Assembly: GCA_025602905.1 (NCBI GenBank)
Contig: JAHLKI010000021.1
Coordinates: 186,001-250,000, forward strand
DNA length: 64,000 nucleotides
Direction: 5' to 3'
Origin: Phlyctochytrium arcticum
Taxonomy: Eukaryota; Chytridiomycota; Chytridiomycetes; Chytridiales; Chytridiaceae
Positions within the stretch are counted from its first letter, which is position 1, and the number at the start of each line of letters is the position of its first letter. Positions 3,362 through 50,001 of this stretch are shown here, piece by piece. The translations under genes and the position numbers were made by a program. Below the pieces are notes generated by a model that saw only the letters and a program-made list of their open reading frames with translations, did no database searches and was not told the origin of the DNA.

Positions 3362-4294
3362 TTAGAGGACTGTGAAGAACTTTGGACGTGCGCTCTTACC
3401 GTTTGGTTCTGATTGAGGGAGAGGCTTGCTTGGGACAGAGGGCAAGTCAATGATGCGGTCTTCGTCCGAAACTTTGGTCTTGGTAGGATCAGCAACATCC
3501 AATGGAGTTCCAGGGACTGGAGGTAACTTTTCCGCCAACTACGTCAAAATGATCAGATGCCACCCACAAGAGAAAAGCTCAAGATCCTTACTGCTTCGTC
3601 TTCCAACGCATCCAATTGGGCCATTATGTCTTCTTCATCTTCCGCTGTAATTTGGCCGCTAATGAGTTCATCGATTTCCTGTCGTACGTAAGTTAGTATC
3701 TGTAGATGCGAGTAGATAGAGCCTTCTGGTAAACTCACAGCTTGGTATGCAATGGCATCTGCAGTATCATCCATCAGTTTTTGGACCGCGTCCAACGACG
3801 TTTCTTGATGAATTTGCTTCAAGATCTCATTTCCTTGCTCCAGACCCTTAATGACGTCCTGTTCCACGAGCGCATATTCTATTTGTCCCGTCTTTGGAGA
3901 TTTATCAGCCTCTTAGTTGCCGCAATTAGCATTTGAACCACACGCACCAGTTGCTCCAATGTAAACAGTTGTTGATCAGTCTGAATCAACAGTTGTTCCT
4001 GATACTTTTTCTTTTTCAATGCAAGAAGAGCACGGCCCTGGTCACCGGCCTTCAAATGATGCTTTGCGACTGCAACTTCCTGGTCCAAGACAGCTTGTAT
4101 CTAAAAGTTGCAGAGAGCGTCGGTTATCCTCGCCGCTAGACCATGACAACTATATGCAATACCTTTTTCTGATATTGTTTCAGTTTATCACGTTGGATTT
4201 TGAGGTCCAGAATAGCCTTGTCCTTTGGAGATGCCTTGTCTCTTGATATTGTCCTATGGCCCTTGGCCTTGTCTTTGGAGATTAGTTGCCCCAT
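3362..4294 (-). CDS. VPS20: ESCRT-III subunit Vps20/CHMP6
   Basis: Five exons on the minus strand (4163..4294, 3948..4100, 3739..3891, 3592..3678, 3362..3538), all in phase 0, give 233 residues. The protein starts MGQ, so Gly2 is available for N-myristoylation, as known for Vps20/CHMP6, which nucleates ESCRT-III on endosomes. Family hallmarks in order are DLKIQRDKLKQYQKK (helix 1), EVAVAKHHLKAGDQGRALLA, IEYALVEQDVIKGLEQGN and KLMDDTADAIAYQAEIDE. ITAEDEEDIMAQLDALEDEA is the acidic tail motif. The C-terminal extension is Pro-rich with DEDRIIDLPSVP, a possible MIT-interacting motif. It is convergent with CDC8, and the start lies 154 bases from the upstream CWC25 pseudogene. Confidence 0.93.
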
Positions 4295-4448
4295 GGCCGC
4301 AGCTGGTAGAAATTGACAGATTCGCTGAATCGCCGCAAGGCGTGTGTCATCAGCGCCACTCCGCAGAGTTGGTGTCTTGCAAAGTCGAGCCAGCGGCAAC
4401 GCAACTTATTCTTCTTCCTTTTATTTCACACTGTGAAGAATAGTCAAT

Positions 4449-5040
4449 ATGGGCGGAGGCGACCTGGTGCGTGCTACTCCTTTCTTTGTGATTGCTAACT
4501 GACGGCATCCCGGGACACTTCGAAACCAGGAGAAAGTTTGGAAAAAAGAGCGAGAAGCTGGCGAGGAACGGAAGAAGAAGACCAACTACTGAAGGAAAAG
4601 ACCGAGGAACGCCAGCTCATGGAATTGCAAGCCCTGTCTGAGGCTGCAGGAGGAAAGCAGCGAGCGACTGGATGTACACCGGAACCGCTGGTACAAACGT
4701 CGTAATGGAAGATGAGCGGGAATTATACCTACTCGGAAAGAGAAGACTGGATCGCTTGGTTGACCAGGGACAGTCGGCACGGGAGATGAATGCGGGAGCC
4801 GCTTTCCAGAGAGGGAATGCATATGGGATGGCAGCGAACTCGCTTCAGATTACCCAAGCGAAAGTTAGGGAAGATCCGTTATTTGCCATCAGACGCCGCG
4901 AGCAGGCATTGTTCAAGTCCGCATTGAACAATCCTGTGGAGCTCAAAAGGCTAAAAGGATCGAAAGTTGAGAAGAGCAAGGGCAAGCAAAGAAAGAGAAG
5001 GTTCCAGGGGTCTAAAGTACCTTCTCCCTCTCTGCTGAGC
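4449..5040 (+). pseudogene. Degenerate tandem copy of CWC25
   Basis: This stretch aligns base for base with the start of the intact CWC25 gene 940 bases downstream. It has the same ATG-GGC-GGA-GGC start, the same GTGCGTGCTACT intron donor, and the same block from the CIR_N domain to the lysine-rich linker. It is broken by a deletion spanning the intron acceptor and the first codons of exon 2 (near 4502), a one-base deletion near 4585 that produces TGA, and a ten-base deletion near 4665. The downstream frame still reads family-like sequence (TAGTNVVMEDERELYLLGKR) to about 4980 and then degenerates. Full-length protein cannot be made. This looks like an old local duplication that decayed. Confidence 0.85.
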
Positions 5041-12024: not shown

Positions 12025-13197
12025 ATGCACCTCATCCGCCTCTCGAGCGTTGGTGTCCTCGCGCTGGCCTCCTCTGCAGTATTCGCGCAATCAACCACTC
12101 CCATTGCCCTTCCTCCTACTACACTTACCGCTCCTCCAGCGACAGGAACAGCTTCAGGCCCTGCTGCCACGGGTACTACCCTGCCTGCTCCGGCCGGCTC
12201 GACATGTGGAGTGCTGAATCAGTGGTCTTATGCCGAGAACGCTGCTGCTTTGAAGGCTCTCATCCCGGCCACCTGCACAAATTTCCTCGGGTCACTCAAG
12301 ATTACGGGTGGAGATATTGTTGATTTGAATGCGCTGGCCAACATTCAGAGCATTCAGCTCTCCCTGGACTTGGCCGTCACTAGTCTCAAAACACTGACCG
12401 GTCTGGCAAATCTTCGCACTGTTGGAGAGAACTTTTTCATCCACGACAACCCACAACTCGCCAATGTTTTCGGTTTAAACACGTTGACAAGCGTCGCGGG
12501 AGGATTACTCATTTACCAGAACCCAGTACTTGTCTCGATCGCTGGGTTGGCATCATTGACGTCAATCAATGCGGACAAGTCGCCCAAGTACCAGTTTGGT
12601 CTTTCTATATATTCCAACCCGCGGTTGGCGGGTCTGGACGGCATTGAAAACTTGAAGAGTGTCGGAATGATGGTTGACCTCAGGAACAACACGCTTTTAA
12701 CCACCATTGACAAGATTCCTGCGGGACCTTTCGCCATCAATGCCATCTCTATCGAAGGAATGCCCAACTTGAAGTCTCTGGCTCCACTCTCAGCCTTCAA
12801 CTCGGGCGTAAACGGCACAGCCGTCTCCATTAGCCGCCTCGATTCGCTCACTTCGTTGGATGGTTTGAAGCTGGCTACAATCTCCAATCTTACAATCACC
12901 CACAATGGTCTTTTGGCGGACGTGAAAGCTTTGTCGACAATCAAGGTCGCTGGTCCCTCTGTCGTTGTCGACGATAACTCCAAACTTTGTGATCTCTCTC
13001 CCATCAACACAGCGGTCGGCTCACTGGCTGGAACGCAGATCTCGGATACATGTGGGAAGCCGCAACGTGAAGGGTCATCCACTACCGGTGGTAATGGAGG
13101 ACCACAGCTGGATATTCCAGGCGCGGGATCACTATCTGCCATCCCCAATGCCCTGTTCTCCTTGGCGGCATTGATTGGTGCTTTTTGGGCGTTTTGA
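12025..13197 (+). CDS. ECM33-like GPI-anchored cell-surface protein
   Basis: Single exon, 390 residues. An N-terminal signal peptide (MHLIRLSSVGVLALASSAVF, cleaved near AQS) is followed by a Thr/Pro/Ala-rich stalk (about 23-65), a likely O-mannosylation region. Two receptor-L-domain-type leucine-rich segments follow (about 75-330), with repeats such as LTGLANLRTVGENFFIHDNP and LTSVAGGLLIYQNP, as in Ecm33, Pst1 and Sps2. A Ser/Gly-rich spacer and a C-terminal hydrophobic tail ending SLAALIGAFWAF fit a GPI-attachment signal. The family helps assemble the fungal cell wall. Assignment to the Ecm33 family is good; the particular paralogue is unknown. Confidence 0.85.
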   Translation: MHLIRLSSVGVLALASSAVFAQSTTPIALPPTTLTAPPATGTASGPAATGTTLPAPAGSTCGVLNQWSYAENAAALKALIPATCTNFLGSLKITGGDIVDLNALANIQSIQLSLDLAVTSLKTLTGLANLRTVGENFFIHDNPQLANVFGLNTLTSVAGGLLIYQNPVLVSIAGLASLTSINADKSPKYQFGLSIYSNPRLAGLDGIENLKSVGMMVDLRNNTLLTTIDKIPAGPFAINAISIEGMPNLKSLAPLSAFNSGVNGTAVSISRLDSLTSLDGLKLATISNLTITHNGLLADVKALSTIKVAGPSVVVDDNSKLCDLSPINTAVGSLAGTQISDTCGKPQREGSSTTGGNGGPQLDIPGAGSLSAIPNALFSLAALIGAFWAF

Positions 13198-13356
13198 GAA
13201 GAAGTTGTTTCCAATTAATTTAGAGTATATATTATAGAATCCGGACTCTTCATCTGTCTCTTTTCAAACTGAATCAATGTATCCTATGTACCTAACTAAA
13301 CCCGAACATTTCTGATCTAATTGAGTACGCAGTGAACGCACAGGTTGCCTGACAGG

Positions 13357-13550
13357 TACACCGAATTCAGTATTTAGTCTAGGTCGAGAATTCGTCGAGG
13401 TTCAGAATTAGTCTAGGTGGACTCACATATTAAAATGTGGAATGTTGAACTTGAGTTGAACCCACCCATATGAAATTGACCTAGACTAATTCTGACCGGA
13501 TTTCGAGTTCAGAATTTGTCTAGGCTAGACTAAATACTGAATTCGGTGTA
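13357..13550. mobile_element. MITE with perfect 26-bp inverted termini
   Basis: Bases 13357-13382 are the exact reverse complement of 13525-13550. Ignoring the outer TA on each side, the termini read CACCGAATTCAGTATTTAGT inward, and the TA pairs look like a target-site duplication of the Tc1/mariner type. A second nested pair (CAGAATTAGTCTAGGT near 13402 and its reverse complement near 13481) makes the whole 194-base unit almost foldable into one hairpin. It has no coding capacity. Perfect termini suggest a fairly recent insertion. Family assignment to Tc1/mariner rests only on the TA flank. Confidence 0.75.
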
Positions 13551-13681
13551 GCTTTGTTACTAGGCTGGTAGCCCTACTCGTCCCCGAAACTCCCACGATT
13601 CTCGGCGATTCTCTGCTCGAGCCCAGGGTGGTGACAACCCATTGCGCAGTGTCCATTTTGGACACACGTGACACTAGTTGG

Positions 13682-13723
13682 GAGTGCACAACTGCCTTTT
13701 TCACCGAAATGAACATACCAGCC
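13682..13723 (+). repeat. Left arm of a diverged inverted repeat
   Basis: GCACAACTGCCTTTTTCACC and the following GAAATGAACATACCAGCC match, in reverse complement, bases 15092-15133 with a handful of substitutions. The two arms are about 1.4 kb apart and could be the ends of a decayed DNA transposon or two opposite copies of one repeat. Confidence 0.6.
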
Positions 13724-15091
13724 TCGCTGAGGTAATCGGAGTTTTGACGCGCTCGCGAAATTCAACTTGCAAAATCAATATGGACCTGTCAGTCAACAAA
13801 AAATGTAGTAAAGTTACGCTTAAGTCTTCTGAAACTCAAGATTGAGTATGCTGCGGTAGACCTGTGAGATTTCATGCAGCACTGTATGGTTATGGTATCA
13901 GCTGTGTGCCCTTTGTTGACGGCGATTGTCATTTTAGATCACCCCCCCTGCCAGGACCTGCCACTTCATTCCTCCACACAGTGAAGCGATCAGGATCCCC
14001 AAATCTCCTCAATTACCACCTAATCTCGCTCTAGTCCAAGTTTGAAGCAAATCCACCGGGGCACATTCGAGCAATCATGGTGGGTAGCCCCCCCAAAAAC
14101 AGGTCACCGCTACGATGTGGAGGCCGACTTTTGTCCCCTAACAGAGGTTCAGCTCGTAAACTGAAGACTCCAGAGAGCAAAAGAAAGATGCATTCACCCC
14201 CGGGTGTATTATTCGCAAGACCAAGAACAGTCCATCGTTATCTCACGGAGATCTTGGCCGGCTCATCACCGCCTTGACAAAGACATTACATTATATTTTA
14301 GTACTGATGCCAGACATAAGGACGCCTCGCTATGTAAGAATTTTTGGTTTTTTTGGGATCTAAATCGTCTACCCCCACTGCTCCGATACAACTCAGAATA
14401 AATTCAAGACATATTTGACAACTTAGAGATCATCTCTGGTCAGTATGACTGCGCAAAATGTTGGAAAAGCGCACTATCAACTCCTCCAACATCTACATCT
14501 AAGGCAAAAAAAATATTCTCAAACACGGCAACAAAGAGAAAGGTGCGCTGTTATCAAGTTTGGTACATAGATGCCCCGCATAAGCATAATTTGCCATCTG
14601 CAGCTATTGTGGGAAAAAAGCCTAATTGGACTCACCCAAAGTTAGCTACATTTACCAATCCAACTCCAACGATTATTGTTATTGTAAAAGTTTGTGCACG
14701 ATTGCTTCTGCGATTACCGAAGAGTTATGTTGCGTATTTTCATGTCTCTACTATAAGCCCCGGGGGTGGCCACTTTCAAGCACACAATTGACCGCATCTA
14801 CAGCCTTGAGCTCATCACATATCGTAGAATACATATAAACGAACAATATACTTCATTTTCAGCCAATTCCACCGGGGCACATTTTTCCTCCAAATGTACA
14901 TCCTCCCCACTGTTAACCAAGAATGCCTCAAAAAGCCGCACTTTTGGTGTTGTTTTGGGTCCCTGGTTGCTACAACATAAACTTAAATCAATATAGAAGG
15001 ATCCCAGTCATATCTGGGTACTTGTCTGTGAGGTTTTTATTAATCGACTTGCGTCCAGAAAAAAGTCTGGGAAAAAATCGGCCGGGTCAGG

Positions 15092-15133
15092 TGGCTGTAC
15101 ATTTCATTTCGGTGGAAAAGGCAGTTGTGCGCT
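15092..15133 (-). repeat. Right arm of a diverged inverted repeat
   Basis: The reverse complement of this segment contains GCACAACTGCCTTTTCCACC followed by GAAATGAAATGTACAGCC, matching the arm at 13682-13723. The interior (13724-15091) contains no protein-like frame longer than noise. Confidence 0.6.
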
Positions 15134-15659
15134 GGGGAGTGAGATTCAGAGTGGTGGCTTGCATGTCACATGATCAGATTTTTGCTTTAAATTCTGTCAA
15201 TTTCTCCTACAGATCCAGATTCATTCCCAGCATCTCCCAACAATCCGACTTTCGAAGTCCAAAGATCTCGAGGCGTTTTGAACACGCAGAAAACCTGTCT
15301 TCTTCCGTACCTTTCACTGCGGAAGAACGTCACGTTTGCATTGCGGACTCTACGTCTGGGCCAACCCCGACCCCCCATCTCTTATATGATGAACTTTTAT
15401 ACACAAACTCAGCTCACCTCGAGTATCAAAAATGGTACAGTGAGATTAATGTTTGTTCTGACACCAGAGATTGGGGACCCGTCTTGTTTTCCGCTCGTCC
15501 ACAGAGGCTGCATGGCAGCATGTGGCCCCCGGCATGTGGGCGTACGTCGTATTACATGCATCGTCGAATATTTCATAATGGCAATTCACAAGTTGGAATA
15601 GCTCGTATTCCGTACTTTTAGATCAAGAGTACGGATTGCATGCAGCGCAGGCTACCACA

Positions 15660-16414
15660 GGGTAGCAATTCGTTAGCAATTCATCGCTGTTCCTAATCGA
15701 CGGGATCCATTCTACGCTGTCAACAACATGGGAAGGGAACACAATGTCACCAATCACCACTACTATAAACTCTGTGGATTCACTGATGCGAAGCGGAGAC
15801 GGGAGAAGTGGCTACGTAGTGCAACCACAGTTTCGCAGGCGATCGACCTCTTGTCGCCGGAAACGTACAAAACTCTTCGGCGGTTATTGGAGCGTTCTCC
15901 TACCCAACCTGACCCTTATCCTCGACCACTACTTTCGCCCCCGTCATCGTCGCTCGAATATCAACAGCTACATCCGGAAGGAGAAAGCGTGGCACACCAT
16001 CTCAAACCGTTCAAAGGTGGAATCGCTTGGCGCTGGCCTTTTCGCTCACAACAGTCGAGGCAACCGCACTGGACCAGGACAGGCGGATTGAGAACCATTC
16101 CATAATATTGCTCGTACCTAAGTCAAGCAATCAAGAAAACAACTGAAACGTCGAGTTTTAGAACTCCGACTCATTGGCGAATATAACATCAGTAGAGTCT
16201 GTCATCTCTGTGAAGGGTTCTTCGGTGGCCGTCAACGGTGGTGGGCCTTGAGGATGTGTCGAGACGTTTTGGTGGGCGGGTGATGAATCGTGATTACATC
16301 GCTGCCATGAACATACTCGCCATTTCCCTCTTCATGAACACTCAAGGAGGACAACGACCAGAAACTTTTTTTTCACAAGTGGGATCTTTACCTCCACAAC
16401 CGGGAGTCCATTAG
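15660..16414 (+). pseudogene. Fanzor-type (eukaryotic TnpB-like) RNA-guided nuclease, degenerate
   Basis: Three frames must be combined to follow one protein. Segments in order are PNRRDPFYAV (the RuvC-I neighbourhood, where the expected Asp before PNRRD is missing), HYYKLCGFTDAKRRREKWL, ILDHYFRPRHRRSNINSYIR, LFAHNSRGNRTGPGQAD (the RuvC-II-side block), and LIGEYNISRVCHLCEGFFGG with a later C (zinc-finger region). NRDYIAAMNILAISLF, the RuvC-III RDxxAAxNI motif, follows. Stops and frameshifts lie near 15890, 16091, 16112 and 16282, so it is inactive. The order and spacing are those of Fanzor proteins of fungi. Family recognition is from remembered consensus, not a search. The N-terminal part before about 15660 is not recognisable. 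Confidence 0.75.
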
Positions 16415-16882
16415 CGACACACTTTCAGAACATTGACGAGGCTGGGACACTCGGAAGGAGCTGTGGGGAGGGCCCTCTGTCAGCGATGAAACCGATCATA
16501 CCAGGCCGTTAAGCTAGTGGATGGATGGTAGTGAAAGACGTAGTAGTCTAGACTACCATAGTATTGCGTATTCCAGGAGACTCGTCCTGGAGTTAGGGAG
16601 ACGTGTAATATATGTTGCTCATAAAAAGGCTCGTTCAAGCGCGGGTTACTCCCCTACCTAACAAAGTCACACTAGAAACTTGACCCCATCCGTATACACT
16701 TTCCACCCATCTTGTTGACTATCACAGAATCTTGTCAGAGTCAATTGGCGGACTTGGATGTGTGTGAAACCTGGTTAAGGGGGAGTTGGGTTGCCTGGGT
16801 CGCGCCCGCAAAAAGATGCAATCCTTCGTTCCCCCAAGGCCTCTGACAATACAGACACTGCCTACACCTCAGAATTTCATCG

Positions 16883-16953
16883 GCGCTGGTGGTGAAATGG
16901 TATCATGCTTGCCTTCCAAGCAAGCGGCCTGGGTTCGATTCCCAGCTAGCGCA
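16883..16953 (+). tRNA. tRNA-Gly (anticodon UCC)
   Basis: The 71 bases fold as a standard tRNA. The acceptor stem GCGCTGG pairs with CTAGCGC (one G-U), and the D arm follows as TGGTGGTGAAATGGTATCA. The anticodon arm is CTTGC-CTTCCAA-GCAAG with anticodon TCC, and the T arm contains the B box GGTTCGATTCC. The discriminator is A. There is no intron and no encoded CCA. A run of Ts follows five bases later as the Pol III terminator. Confidence 0.95.
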
Positions 16954-16957
16954 TTCA

Positions 16958-16964
16958 TTTTTTT
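16958..16964 (+). terminator. RNA polymerase III T-run terminator of tRNA-Gly
   Basis: An uninterrupted T tract begins a few bases after the tRNA 3' end, as expected for Pol III termination. Confidence 0.75.
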
Positions 16965-16970
16965 CTCGTC

Positions 16971-17022
16971 GTGATCAGGTCGTGATCAGGTCGGGATCAG
17001 GTCGGGATCAGGTCGGGATCAG
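16971..17022. repeat. 11-bp tandem repeat (about 4.7 copies)
   Basis: Units are GTGATCAGGTC (twice) then GGGATCAGGTC (twice) and a partial GGGATCAG. The array starts 17 bases after the tRNA and is too short and too regular in spacing to be a CRISPR. It may have arisen by slippage. Confidence 0.9.
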
Positions 17023-18193
17023 ATTTTTGTCGTCTCTGACGATGATTTGAACAACAGTCTTTCTTCTACTCGAGTACAGTCTACACACCGTTTTGTAATA
17101 TGCCACAAATCCACAATAATTGCGCGGGATGGCTAACCATTCTCACACATCCCCGGGCTTCTGCACCTGCTCCCAACATATTTTTGCCGAGCAATTTCTG
17201 AACTAAACGTTTCAATGTGAACAACGCTAATAGCTAGATGAATGAGATTCTCCTATCCACGAGAGGTACATATCTGTCGCCATACATCCGTGGCCAGTAA
17301 TGTATAATGCTTTATGGGAATCCCACGATGTATGCACTGTAAAAATTTTCACCTGCCATAAGCCGTGCACTGTGGATCAGATTGTAGATCATGCTCGCTT
17401 TGCAAACGCTGCATAACGCAGTCCATCTTTGTCCGGCCGCGTCTGCATCTACAAGCGTAATCGTTCAAGGTAATCGCGTCCTGTACAAAAGGTCCTACGG
17501 TACTTTCACGTTCACAACATTGAATTTGCCTACTTTCTAGAACCAGACTTTCATCTGGTTATTGTAATTTTATATATGCGGACTGGTCCGGTTGAAAGAT
17601 TCCGTTATTTGGAATGAACTGGTGTACAAGATAATACACATTTCAATGTTGTCGTCCCTGCAACGTAGTTCGTCGGGTCGTCCATAATTCACATCTAAAA
17701 TGCGCGATATGTTGCAGGTCGAGATGTTGAGTTTCATATCAATCGGACATTCGATCCAATCGGCCAGTTTGATGCTTCTCCTCGTATCTCCGAGGTAAAA
17801 TTCACAATCAGCTGTCTTCTTCGTTGATTTGAACCTTGACGAAGAGGTTGGCAATAAATCTCCACCGCCTCCGTTCAAACCGTCCTTGTCAGCCGCTAGA
17901 TTCTAAATAAGGTGGTTTCTCAAACGAGAGGCAGGGTTGAAAGTTTTCCAAGAAGCCAAAGGACCCGGCAGCACGGAGATTGGTCCTCACCCTATTTCGT
18001 CGCTCATATTCGGTAAAGATCGGCAGATCACTCGGTCGGCGCTTTCGAACTTTCAACTTTGGCTTTTCCCTGAAATGTGAGTCATCAACGCTGGTCAACT
18101 CAGTCCAAAATCCGCTTTGTTTTGTGGACGACCTCCAGAATTCCAGGATCAAGACGTTATTATCAAAAGCAGCCGGAGGATTTTCGAGTTACG
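17023..18193. other. Intergenic region upstream of SET1
   Basis: These 1.2 kb contain no family-like frame on either strand. Minus-strand frames at 17570-17878 and 17889-18152 have no recognisable motifs. The last few hundred bases presumably hold the SET1 promoter and 5' UTR. An in-frame ATG at 18077 could extend SET1. Confidence 0.45.
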
Positions 18194-48188: not shown

Positions 48189-50001
48189 ATGCCCGCGCCA
48201 GCTTTCAATCTTGAACCATTCGGTCAGGACCTTACCCTTGACAACCCGAAAAAAGAAAATACGAATCTTTTATCAGCCATTGGTATACCATTTCCCTTGT
48301 TTGTGTGAAGCGCTCGCCGGCATTTTAGCTGATACTGAAAGTGTAGGGTCGGCGGAAATCGTGTGCATCGGCGATGGAAGCCACGGCACCCTAGAGTTTT
48401 ATGTAAGTTTTGGTATACGCAGGCAATGAGCTACACAATGTTAACCACATTGCAGCGTGAGCGAGCGTACATTACACAGCTGTTGGTAGCCGAGAAAGGT
48501 AAGATAGAAGTACCGATATGCTCAGAATGTCGCTCACAGTGATTGTCATAATCTTAGGCTTCCAGACTATCGTGACGGAAGCGGATTTTCCGGATTCCAT
48601 GACTATCACTCGTTACGTTCAAAACACAAGTACCCAAGATGAAAAAGTCCTGGGTGCAGTCAACGCATTGAAAGATTTCAAAAGGTTTCCCTTATGGATG
48701 TGGAGAAATGAAGTGATGGTACGCTATTGAATGCGCAGCCCGTTCAAATTAAAGAAAATCTGACAAGCTTCAAATTCAGGTTCCGTTTGTTAAGTGGCTC
48801 CGCATGTGGAACGATAGACTTCCGAACGATGAGCCGAAGATTTCATTGTACGGCATGGATCTTTACAGCCTACACACGTCCCGTGCAGCAGTTTTAGAAT
48901 ACTTGGCCAAAGTAGATCCGCCCGCCGCAGCCAAGGCGCGTGAGCGCTACAGTCTTTTGGAACCATTTGGGGAAGATACAACTGGCTATGCATTTGCTGC
49001 TAGATACGGGCTACATAAGGGCTGTCGAGATGAAGTTGTCAAAGTACTTACTGATCTGGTCGCGAAACGATACGAATATATCAAGAAGGAGGCCACTACT
49101 GAAGCGGATGCGCAATTCGTTGCTGAGATGAACGCCCGGGTAGTGAAAGATGCCGAAGAGTATTACCGCTGTATGTTAGAAGAGGACGTCAAGACTTGGA
49201 ACCTCCGGGATGGACATATGGTGGATGCTATTGAGCAAGTTCGTGCGCAGCTGGATGCGCAGCAAAATCTGGGCCCGACCAAAGTGGTAGTCTGGGCACA
49301 TAATAGCCATGTTGGAGATGCCAGAGCAACTGACATGGGCCGTCGACGAGGCGAGATCAACGTAGGTCAACTTTGTCGAGAACGCTTTGGGAAGGACAAA
49401 GTGTTCACGTTTGGGATGACAACAACTACCGGAACTGTGACGGCTGCGGATGAATGGGACACCCCAGGGAGTAAGCACATATATTGCCATACTTTATTTT
49501 GCTCCATAATTAATACCGGTACGGCAGAAATCATGAGGGTTAACCATCCTTTGCCGAATTCAGTGGAACACATGATGTCAACCACCTTTCCACCGCCCAG
49601 GCACCATCCGGCTCATCACGCTCATCACACTGGTCGTGCTACGCTCTTACTTACCCACCGAATCGACGCTGAAACAAACAAGCGTGTTCCGCTGGATGAG
49701 GACTTGACTGATTTCTTGGACCAAGTGCGACTTGAACGGTTCATAGGAGTTATATACCGACCGGATACGGAAAGATGGAGCCACTATTCAGGATGTGCTT
49801 TGGCAAGTCAGGTAAGCTATGTAACAATGTTCCCGCCATTTCAAGGGGTAACATTTGCGAAAACAGTTTGACGCTCTGATCCATTTTCACTCACAACCGG
49901 TATTCGCCCGCTCGATAAATCGGCCCACTTTCCTGATGCTTCACACGATGTATCAGAAACCTTCCCTTTCGGACTGTAAGCGCAAGGTATTGTCAAAGTA
50001 G
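48189..50001 (+). CDS. Erythromycin-esterase-family (EreA/EreB-like) hydrolase
   Basis: Seven exons (48189..48282, 48329..48402, 48456..48498, 48558..48718, 48780..49470, 49528..49811, 49867..50001). Family motifs: CIGDGSHGTLEFY (matches GExxHGTxEF, with Asp where Ere enzymes carry the first Glu), IVTEADFPDS, PLWMWRNEVM, LYGMDLYSL, VVWAHNSHVGDARATDMG and ERFIGVIYRPDTER. Bacterial members hydrolyse the lactone ring of macrolides, but most homologues have unknown substrates. The annotated C-terminus (HFHSQPVFARS...) departs from the family; a +1 shifted frame reads RPLDKSAHFPDAS and ends ETFPFGL, the usual family terminus, at 49979. This suggests a one-base frameshift or sequence error near 49890. 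Confidence 0.82.

What the first reader, a model, noticed from the sequence alone, without database searches (positions are those of the whole stretch)
15660..16414. Decayed Fanzor (eukaryotic TnpB-like nuclease) copy
Segments across three frames match the fungal Fanzor order: RuvC-I neighbourhood, central conserved blocks, CxxC zinc-finger region and the RuvC-III NRDxxAAxNI motif. Several stops and frameshifts mean it is dead, but it records past activity of Fanzor-bearing elements in this lineage, and intact copies may exist elsewhere.
Basis: partly seen in the sequence, partly recalled or inferred. Interest (0 to 1): 0.75.

Follow-up and report, generated by a model that had tools for sequence, protein, structure and literature searches.

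The report
Dead fragment of a Fanzor nuclease

Summary
The reading holds. Window 15692-16414 (+) is the C-terminal (RuvC plus zinc-finger) half of a Fanzor1 gene. It is 84% identical (187 of 223 aligned residues) to P0002, a 573-aa metagenomic protein. A profile built only from five database proteins scores 193.5 bits here; the best of 500 shuffles scores 7.4. A profile of the family finds the solved Spizellomyces punctatus Fanzor at E 2.1e-15.

The copy is dead. No match to residues 1-341 was found in the window, the first catalytic Asp position reads Val, the frame changes four times, and a 45-nt insertion holds the only two in-frame stops. About 95 nt from the stop onward are shared with five other copies, where known Fanzor elements make guide RNA, but no fold signal was found.

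Seven copies of this subfamily were found in the 31.5-Mb assembly, none with the N-terminal half. The C2 copy keeps a 355-codon open frame. A distant full-length 633-codon Fanzor1 frame lies on C51 (SpuFz1 E 3.7e-121).

Partial Fanzor copies in chytrids are known; this is one more.

The parts
15692..16414 (+). Decayed C-terminal half of a Fanzor1 gene, from just after the RuvC-I Asp position to the TAG stop
   Evidence: tblastn with P0002, linked E 5e-95; 187 of 223 residues identical in a frame-shift-aware alignment
15692..15874 (+). RuvC-I neighbourhood (PNRRDPFYAVNN..., P0002 residues 342-402), frame +2
   Evidence: the preceding codon GTT (15689-15691) stands where relatives have the catalytic Asp
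15876..16277 (+). Central RuvC blocks, catalytic-Glu motif GEYN.S and first CxxC (CHLC), P0002 residues 408-528, frame +3, interrupted by a 45-nt insertion with two stops
16271..16411 (+). RuvC-III NRDYIAAMNI motif and C-terminal tail (P0002 residues 527-573), frame +2
16412..16505 (+). Conserved stretch starting at the stop codon, shared with five other genomic copies; candidate remnant of the guide-RNA (omega-RNA) region; right limit approximate
   Evidence: alignment of six copies; no significant fold; no Rfam match other than the tRNA in 13000-18000

Best explanation
The stretch is a 5'-truncated, inactivated copy of a Fanzor1 gene left by a transposable element. Shown: homology to Fanzor1, no N-terminal half, damage, seven related copies, shared 3' end. 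Known for intact Fanzor1 from the literature: a RuvC nuclease that cuts DNA guided by an RNA made from the element's right end. Inferred: this copy once belonged to such an element and was functional until fairly recently. It now makes no working nuclease.
For: Linked tblastn E 5e-95. Profile without any sequence of this genome: 193.5 bits, shuffles at most 7.4. Subfamily passes the PF07282 cut-off (P0002 E 5.3e-8; C2 frame E 7.6e-9). Profile A3 hits Spizellomyces punctatus Fanzor E 2.1e-15 and Parasitella Fanzor1 E 7.4e-5. A low-confidence model of P0002 has SpuFz as its four best PDB matches, E 3.0e-7 to 6.2e-7. Between the window copy and the C14 copy, synonymous differences far exceed non-synonymous (pS 0.738, pN 0.204, 170 codons), as expected if both descend from coding genes that died late.
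Against: Pfam and PDB searches with the window's own stop-masked frames found no Fanzor match. The C14 frame matches PF07282 only below its cut-off (E 0.00062). With the C2 frame alone, a Cas12f chain (8hr5, E 0.00099) ranks above SpuFz1 (E 0.002). No convincing terminal inverted repeats were found for the relic and target duplications were not sought, so element membership is inferred from family habit. Viral contigs gave no relative.
Confidence: 0.95

Rival explanations
1. The protein is dead but the locus still acts as a guide-RNA donor: the 3' end is transcribed and its RNA guides an intact Fanzor made elsewhere, like the 'ghost' loci of S. punctatus.
For: About 95 nt from the stop onward are alignable in six copies although coding parts are broken. 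S. punctatus has ghost loci with the RNA but no gene (PMC10432273, passages). A full-length Fanzor1 frame exists in the genome.
Against: Single-strand folds are no better than shuffles (z -0.62, 0.70, 1.77, 0.62; four of the six copies folded); the alignment's covariation term is unfavourable (+0.78). The full-length frame found belongs to a distant subfamily (25% identity in the RuvC region), so the RNA may not fit it. Shared 3' ends also follow simply from common descent.
Confidence: 0.1
2. The frame changes are sequencing or assembly errors in an intact gene.
For: No stop codon occurs in aligned codons; one frame change lies at a run of eight T.
Against: No convincing N-terminal piece lies in the window and none was found in the assembly; a 45-nt insertion with two stops and a lost catalytic Asp are not single-base errors.
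Confidence: 0.02
3. It is a living gene whose frames are joined by splicing.
For: Fungal genes often have introns (general knowledge).
Against: P0002 at 84% identity reads through the same region in one frame; the 45-nt insertion shows no GT...AG ends by eye; no N-terminal half was found.
Confidence: 0.01
4. It belongs to another RuvC family: TnpB, Fanzor2 or a Cas12-like protein.
For: With the C2 frame alone the best PDB chain is 8hr5 (named Transposase, CnCas12f1), E 0.00099, ahead of SpuFz1 at 0.002.
Against: The family profile A3 prefers Fanzor1 by far (2.1e-15 against 3e-3 for the best non-Fanzor chain), and the C14 frame matches SpuFz1 best (2.6e-5).
Confidence: 0.02

Closest known systems
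Spizellomyces punctatus Fanzor SpuFz1 (Spu-1 element; PDB 8gkh, 9ceu-9cez)
   Same: RuvC core, Glu six residues before the first CxxC, zinc finger, NRD motif; DPN after the first Asp, as in the closest relatives P0002/P0003; many full, partial and gene-less copies are reported for Spu-1 (PMC10432273, passages)
   Different: Different subfamily: sequence similarity is confined to the C-terminal half (profile positions 344-571); this copy lacks the N-terminal half and is broken
Uncharacterised Fanzor1-like proteins of Borealophlyctis nickersoniae (HK104_001820, _010636, _007151, _008541, _010414) and JGI metagenome proteins P0001-P0003, P0005
   Same: Same subfamily; the window copy is 84% identical to P0002 in the C-half
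   Different: They keep at least part of the N-terminal half, except P0009 (_010414), which is partial and starts at the linker
Fanzor1 elements with Crypton-like parts (MCi-2A of Mucor, Bao and Jurka 2013, PMC3627910, passages)
   Same: One copy in this genome (C2) lies downstream of Crypton-like recombinase frames
   Different: Comparing by eye the 21 PF07282 rows with the 131 NDC10_II rows, only the C2 place pairs within about 5 kb; no NDC10_II row lies near the window copy

Membership tests
Fanzor1 | Sequence homology to solved Fanzor1 proteins above other RuvC families | tested here: met
   Profile A3: SpuFz1 2.1e-15, Parasitella Fanzor1 7.4e-5, next non-Fanzor (LaTranC) 3e-3. Single queries are less clear: C14 frame SpuFz1 first, 2.6e-5; C2 frame 8hr5 0.00099 before SpuFz1 0.002; window frame none
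Fanzor1 | C4 zinc finger / TNB domain (PF07282) before the last RuvC Asp | tested here: met
   Over the cut-off in P0001, P0002, P0004, P0005, P0006-P0009 and the C2 copy; below it in P0010 and the C14 copy; no match in the C51 full-length frame at E <= 0.01. The window copy itself gives no Pfam match; it keeps the first CxxC, but the second Cys of the second pair is lost at a frame change
Fanzor1 | Fingerprint: DPG at RuvC-I and the alternative Glu six residues before the first CxxC (PMC10711439, passages) | tested here: met
   By eye: Glu-x6-Cys in 10 of 10 proteins P0001-P0010; DPG in 8 of 10, P0002 and P0003 read DPN, as does SpuFz1. The window copy keeps the Glu
Fanzor1 | RuvC Asp-Glu-Asp triad (SpuFz1 D383, E541, D606; PMC11423790, passages) | tested here: inconclusive
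   Present in P0001-P0009 by eye. In the window copy the Glu and last Asp are present, the first Asp position is Val, so it is filed as a dead copy, not a working member
Fanzor1 | TDG motif in the WED domain (PMC10711439, passages) | tested here: inconclusive
   By eye: present in P0001, P0002, P0003, P0005, P0008, P0010, i.e. 6 of the 9 proteins other than P0009, which starts after it; changed in P0004 and P0006, segment missing in P0007. Not testable in the window copy, which lacks the N-half
Fanzor1 | Guide RNA from the 3' end | tested here: inconclusive
   Conserved stretch from the stop onward, no fold signal
Fanzor1 | Borne on a eukaryotic transposon | tested here: inconclusive
   Seven dispersed copies but no termini found for the relic
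Fanzor1 | RNA-guided DNA cleavage | not testable with these tools

The most novel reading that the evidence does not exclude
In this fungal lineage the RNA-binding N-terminal half of one Fanzor1 subfamily was lost from every copy found, while the RuvC/zinc-finger half and the 3' end stayed. At least one C-half is still open. Such stripped copies could work in trans with other, full-length Fanzors of the genome, as half-enzymes or guide-RNA donors.
Probability: 0.05. Interest if true: 0.6.

Novelty: new member of a known kind. Interest (0 to 1): 0.25.

Why it matters
It shows that a tool-less reader can recognise a broken Fanzor from raw sequence, and records one Fanzor1 subfamily across this genome, metagenomes and Borealophlyctis. 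The genome carries both relics and a full-length SpuFz1-like frame, so it could serve to follow birth and decay of Fanzor elements and to look for a further active enzyme. The relic itself does not change what is known.

Tried and rejected
Homologue search with the 239-aa C14 piece gave nothing, probably because full-length proteins exceed the tool's length limit; the longer C2 frame worked. Viral contigs: 55 pattern matches, none a relative. Terminal repeats of the relic: no convincing pair. Guide-RNA fold: not above chance. Rfam in 13000-18000: only the tRNA-Gly.

The idea that the upstream 1.46-kb inverted-repeat element is a gene-less 'ghost' of a Fanzor element is not supported: three frames of its long relative L067 gave no PF07282, only a weak DUF6589 match below cut-off (E 0.069), and no Fanzor row lies there. 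Its left end is, however, also found beside a Fanzor-like frame in L040.

The idea that the C2 copy is a spliced fusion of a Crypton-like recombinase with a Fanzor half: a donor-like GTAAGG follows the GCR1_C frame, but the two YAG acceptors in the stretch searched do not keep the frame, so it is not supported.

The idea that one ancestral N-half loss explains all copies is not favoured: in a tree the window copy joins full-length P0002 and P0003, apart from the C14/C16 copies and the C2 copy; that fork has support 87/93 and is drawn open, and no branch is starred, so one loss is not ruled out.

Full report
What was checked. The window is bases 186001-250000 of contig C21 in a 31.48-Mb, 91-contig genome. 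Its genes include clathrin heavy chain, seryl-tRNA synthetase and a CWC25 splicing factor. The only named relatives of the finding come from the chytrid Borealophlyctis nickersoniae, so a chytrid-like fungus is inferred; the genome's name is not given.

The relic. First evidence came from the genome itself: parts of the 1.1-kb region match other places at 64-76% DNA identity. The C14 copy has a 239-codon open stretch that reads GIDPNRRDPFYAVNN...NSRG...GEYNTSRVCHRC...MNRD and matches the solved SpuFz1 at E 2.6e-5; its PF07282 match is below the cut-off (E 0.00062). The C2 copy has a 355-codon open frame over the PF07282 cut-off (E 7.6e-9); in the PDB its first match is a Cas12f chain, 8hr5 (E 0.00099), then SpuFz1 (E 0.002). 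With the C2 frame as query, five proteins were found, four from JGI and one from B. nickersoniae; P0002 then added P0006-P0010.

Alignment to the window. P0002 aligns in three linked pieces over 15692-16411, residues 342-573, E 5e-95. A frame-shift-aware alignment gives 187 identical of 223 residues, four frame changes, one 45-nt insertion with two stops, seven residues missing, and no stop in aligned codons. The TAG stop is at 16412-16414. The codon before the alignment start is GTT where relatives have the catalytic Asp. A profile from P0001-P0005 alone scores 193.5 and 154.8 bits in the two frames of the region; among 500 dinucleotide shuffles in six frames the best is 7.4 bits; tblastn gives at most 27.7 bits in shuffles against 199 for the best real piece. 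The same profile finds no convincing N-terminal piece anywhere in the window. Against: Pfam and PDB searches with the window's own masked frames found no Fanzor.

Family. Profile A3 (eleven sequences, two of them from this genome) finds SpuFz1 at 2.1e-15, Parasitella Fanzor1 at 7.4e-5 and LaTranC, not a Fanzor, at 3e-3. Profile comparison with the C51 frame gives 98.3% probability over residues 187-559 of P0002. The predicted model of P0002 is of low confidence (mean pLDDT 60.4, pTM 0.39); its four best PDB matches are all SpuFz (E 3.0e-7 to 6.2e-7, TM about 0.27, rmsd about 25), which is supportive but weak.

Copies in this genome. Merging the stronger rows of three searches (20 of 27 rows, 16 of 21, 29 of 35; E about 0.001 or better, weaker rows dropped) gives 33 Fanzor- or TnpB-like places; the tool calls such counts lower bounds. 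Of the window's own subfamily I count seven: C21 (window), C14 at 93.7 kb, C14 at 194.8 kb, C16 at 75 kb, C40 at 127 kb (the most diverged), C7 at 638 kb and C2 at 594 kb. In the 35 rows no match starts before residue 248, and a query of residues 1-240 finds 0 matches at E <= 1. The tool warns that an empty answer without a positive control shows nothing; the only control is that the C-half of the same protein gives matches in the same genome. A full-length, distant relative is present: L066 on C51, 633 codons open from stop to stop, SpuFz1 E 3.7e-121 over residues 8-631, though Pfam gives it no family at E <= 0.01. One search lists other long open frames (C6 665, C46 651), which were not read.

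Age and selection. pS 0.738 and pN 0.204 between window and C14 copies (170 codons), 0.774 and 0.284 between window and C2 (222 codons), 0.744 and 0.274 between C14 and C2 (189 codons); synonymous sites are close to or at saturation. Two other comparisons in that call, with the C16 copy, returned nothing. The pattern says that most divergence accumulated while the genes coded for protein. In the tree the window copy joins P0002 and P0003, but no branch reaches the starred support level and the C16 and C51 rows have long branches.

3' end. From the stop codon, about 95 nt are alignable in six copies, all with TAGCGAC at the start; one of them, the C14 93.7-kb copy (L008), has gaps there. The seventh copy, C2, was left out of that alignment; it aligns only weakly past its stop. 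In S. [quoted passage not shown] Folding is not above chance in the four copies folded: z -0.62 (window), 0.70, 1.77, 0.62; RNAalifold gives 15 pairs, four with a two-sided change in some sequence, but an unfavourable covariation term.

Mechanism. Established for Fanzor1 in the papers seen in passages (PMC10432273, PMC11423790, PMC10711439): RNA-guided DNA cleavage by the RuvC triad, RNA from the right end. Shown here: homology and damage. Inferred: this copy was part of such an element, lost its front half, and decayed. Transposases associated with Fanzor1, Crypton recombinases among them, are already reported (PMC10711439; PMC3627910).

Novelty. Four searches of the held library show no title or abstract start that names Borealophlyctis or this subfamily; only one paper held both 'Fanzor' and 'chytrid'. 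This says little, since only open-licence papers are held and not all matches were listed. The kind of thing, a partial Fanzor copy in a chytrid, is known: 42 full or partial loci and 134 gene-less loci are reported in S. punctatus (PMC10432273). That Spizellomyces is a chytrid is general knowledge.

Noticed in passing
window 13683-15138: A 1.46-kb element with about 31-bp inverted ends and seven further near-identical copies (97-99%) in the genome, so recently active; a longer relative (L067, C5, about 3.87 kb) has open frames, of which three were scanned with only a weak DUF6589 match (E 0.069).
   Followed up: partly
L044:1-1743 (C2, 1680 kb): One open frame holds a Copia-type reverse transcriptase domain (RVT_2, E 7.9e-35) followed by a TnpB-like zinc-finger domain (PF07282, E 1.9e-17): a fusion or an in-frame insertion into a retrotransposon.
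   Followed up: partly
L032:1260-4799 (C2, 591-595 kb): Crypton-like recombinase frames (NDC10_II E 1.6e-39, GCR1_C E 8.2e-9) lie directly upstream of the open 355-codon Fanzor C-half; a spliced fusion was not supported.
   Followed up: partly
L040:4951-6007 and the frame at 3957-4982 (C7, 272-274 kb): The left end of the inverted-repeat element family of window 13683 abuts a frame that looks by eye like a Fanzor RuvC part of another subfamily; that frame has no PF07282 match, but the next one, at C7:271774-271896, is over the cut-off. No right end was found in the fetched stretch.
   Followed up: partly
L009 (C16, 75 kb): By eye, an N-terminal frame resembling that of another Fanzor-like locus (L034) sits directly before the window-type C-half; looks like a mosaic or nested insertion.
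   Followed up: no
G000, whole genome: 131 NDC10_II (Crypton-like) rows at E <= 0.001, some with equal scores in series on C23 and C26.
   Followed up: no
window 13354-13553: A 200-bp imperfect palindrome (69% to its own reverse complement), 93% like a place on C13; a small hairpin-type repeat.
   Followed up: no
window 48804-49868: Open frame with a strong erythromycin-esterase family match (PF05139, E 2.4e-82) in a fungal genome.
   Followed up: no
window 16883-16953: tRNA-Gly (TCC), about 470 bases downstream of the relic.
   Followed up: no
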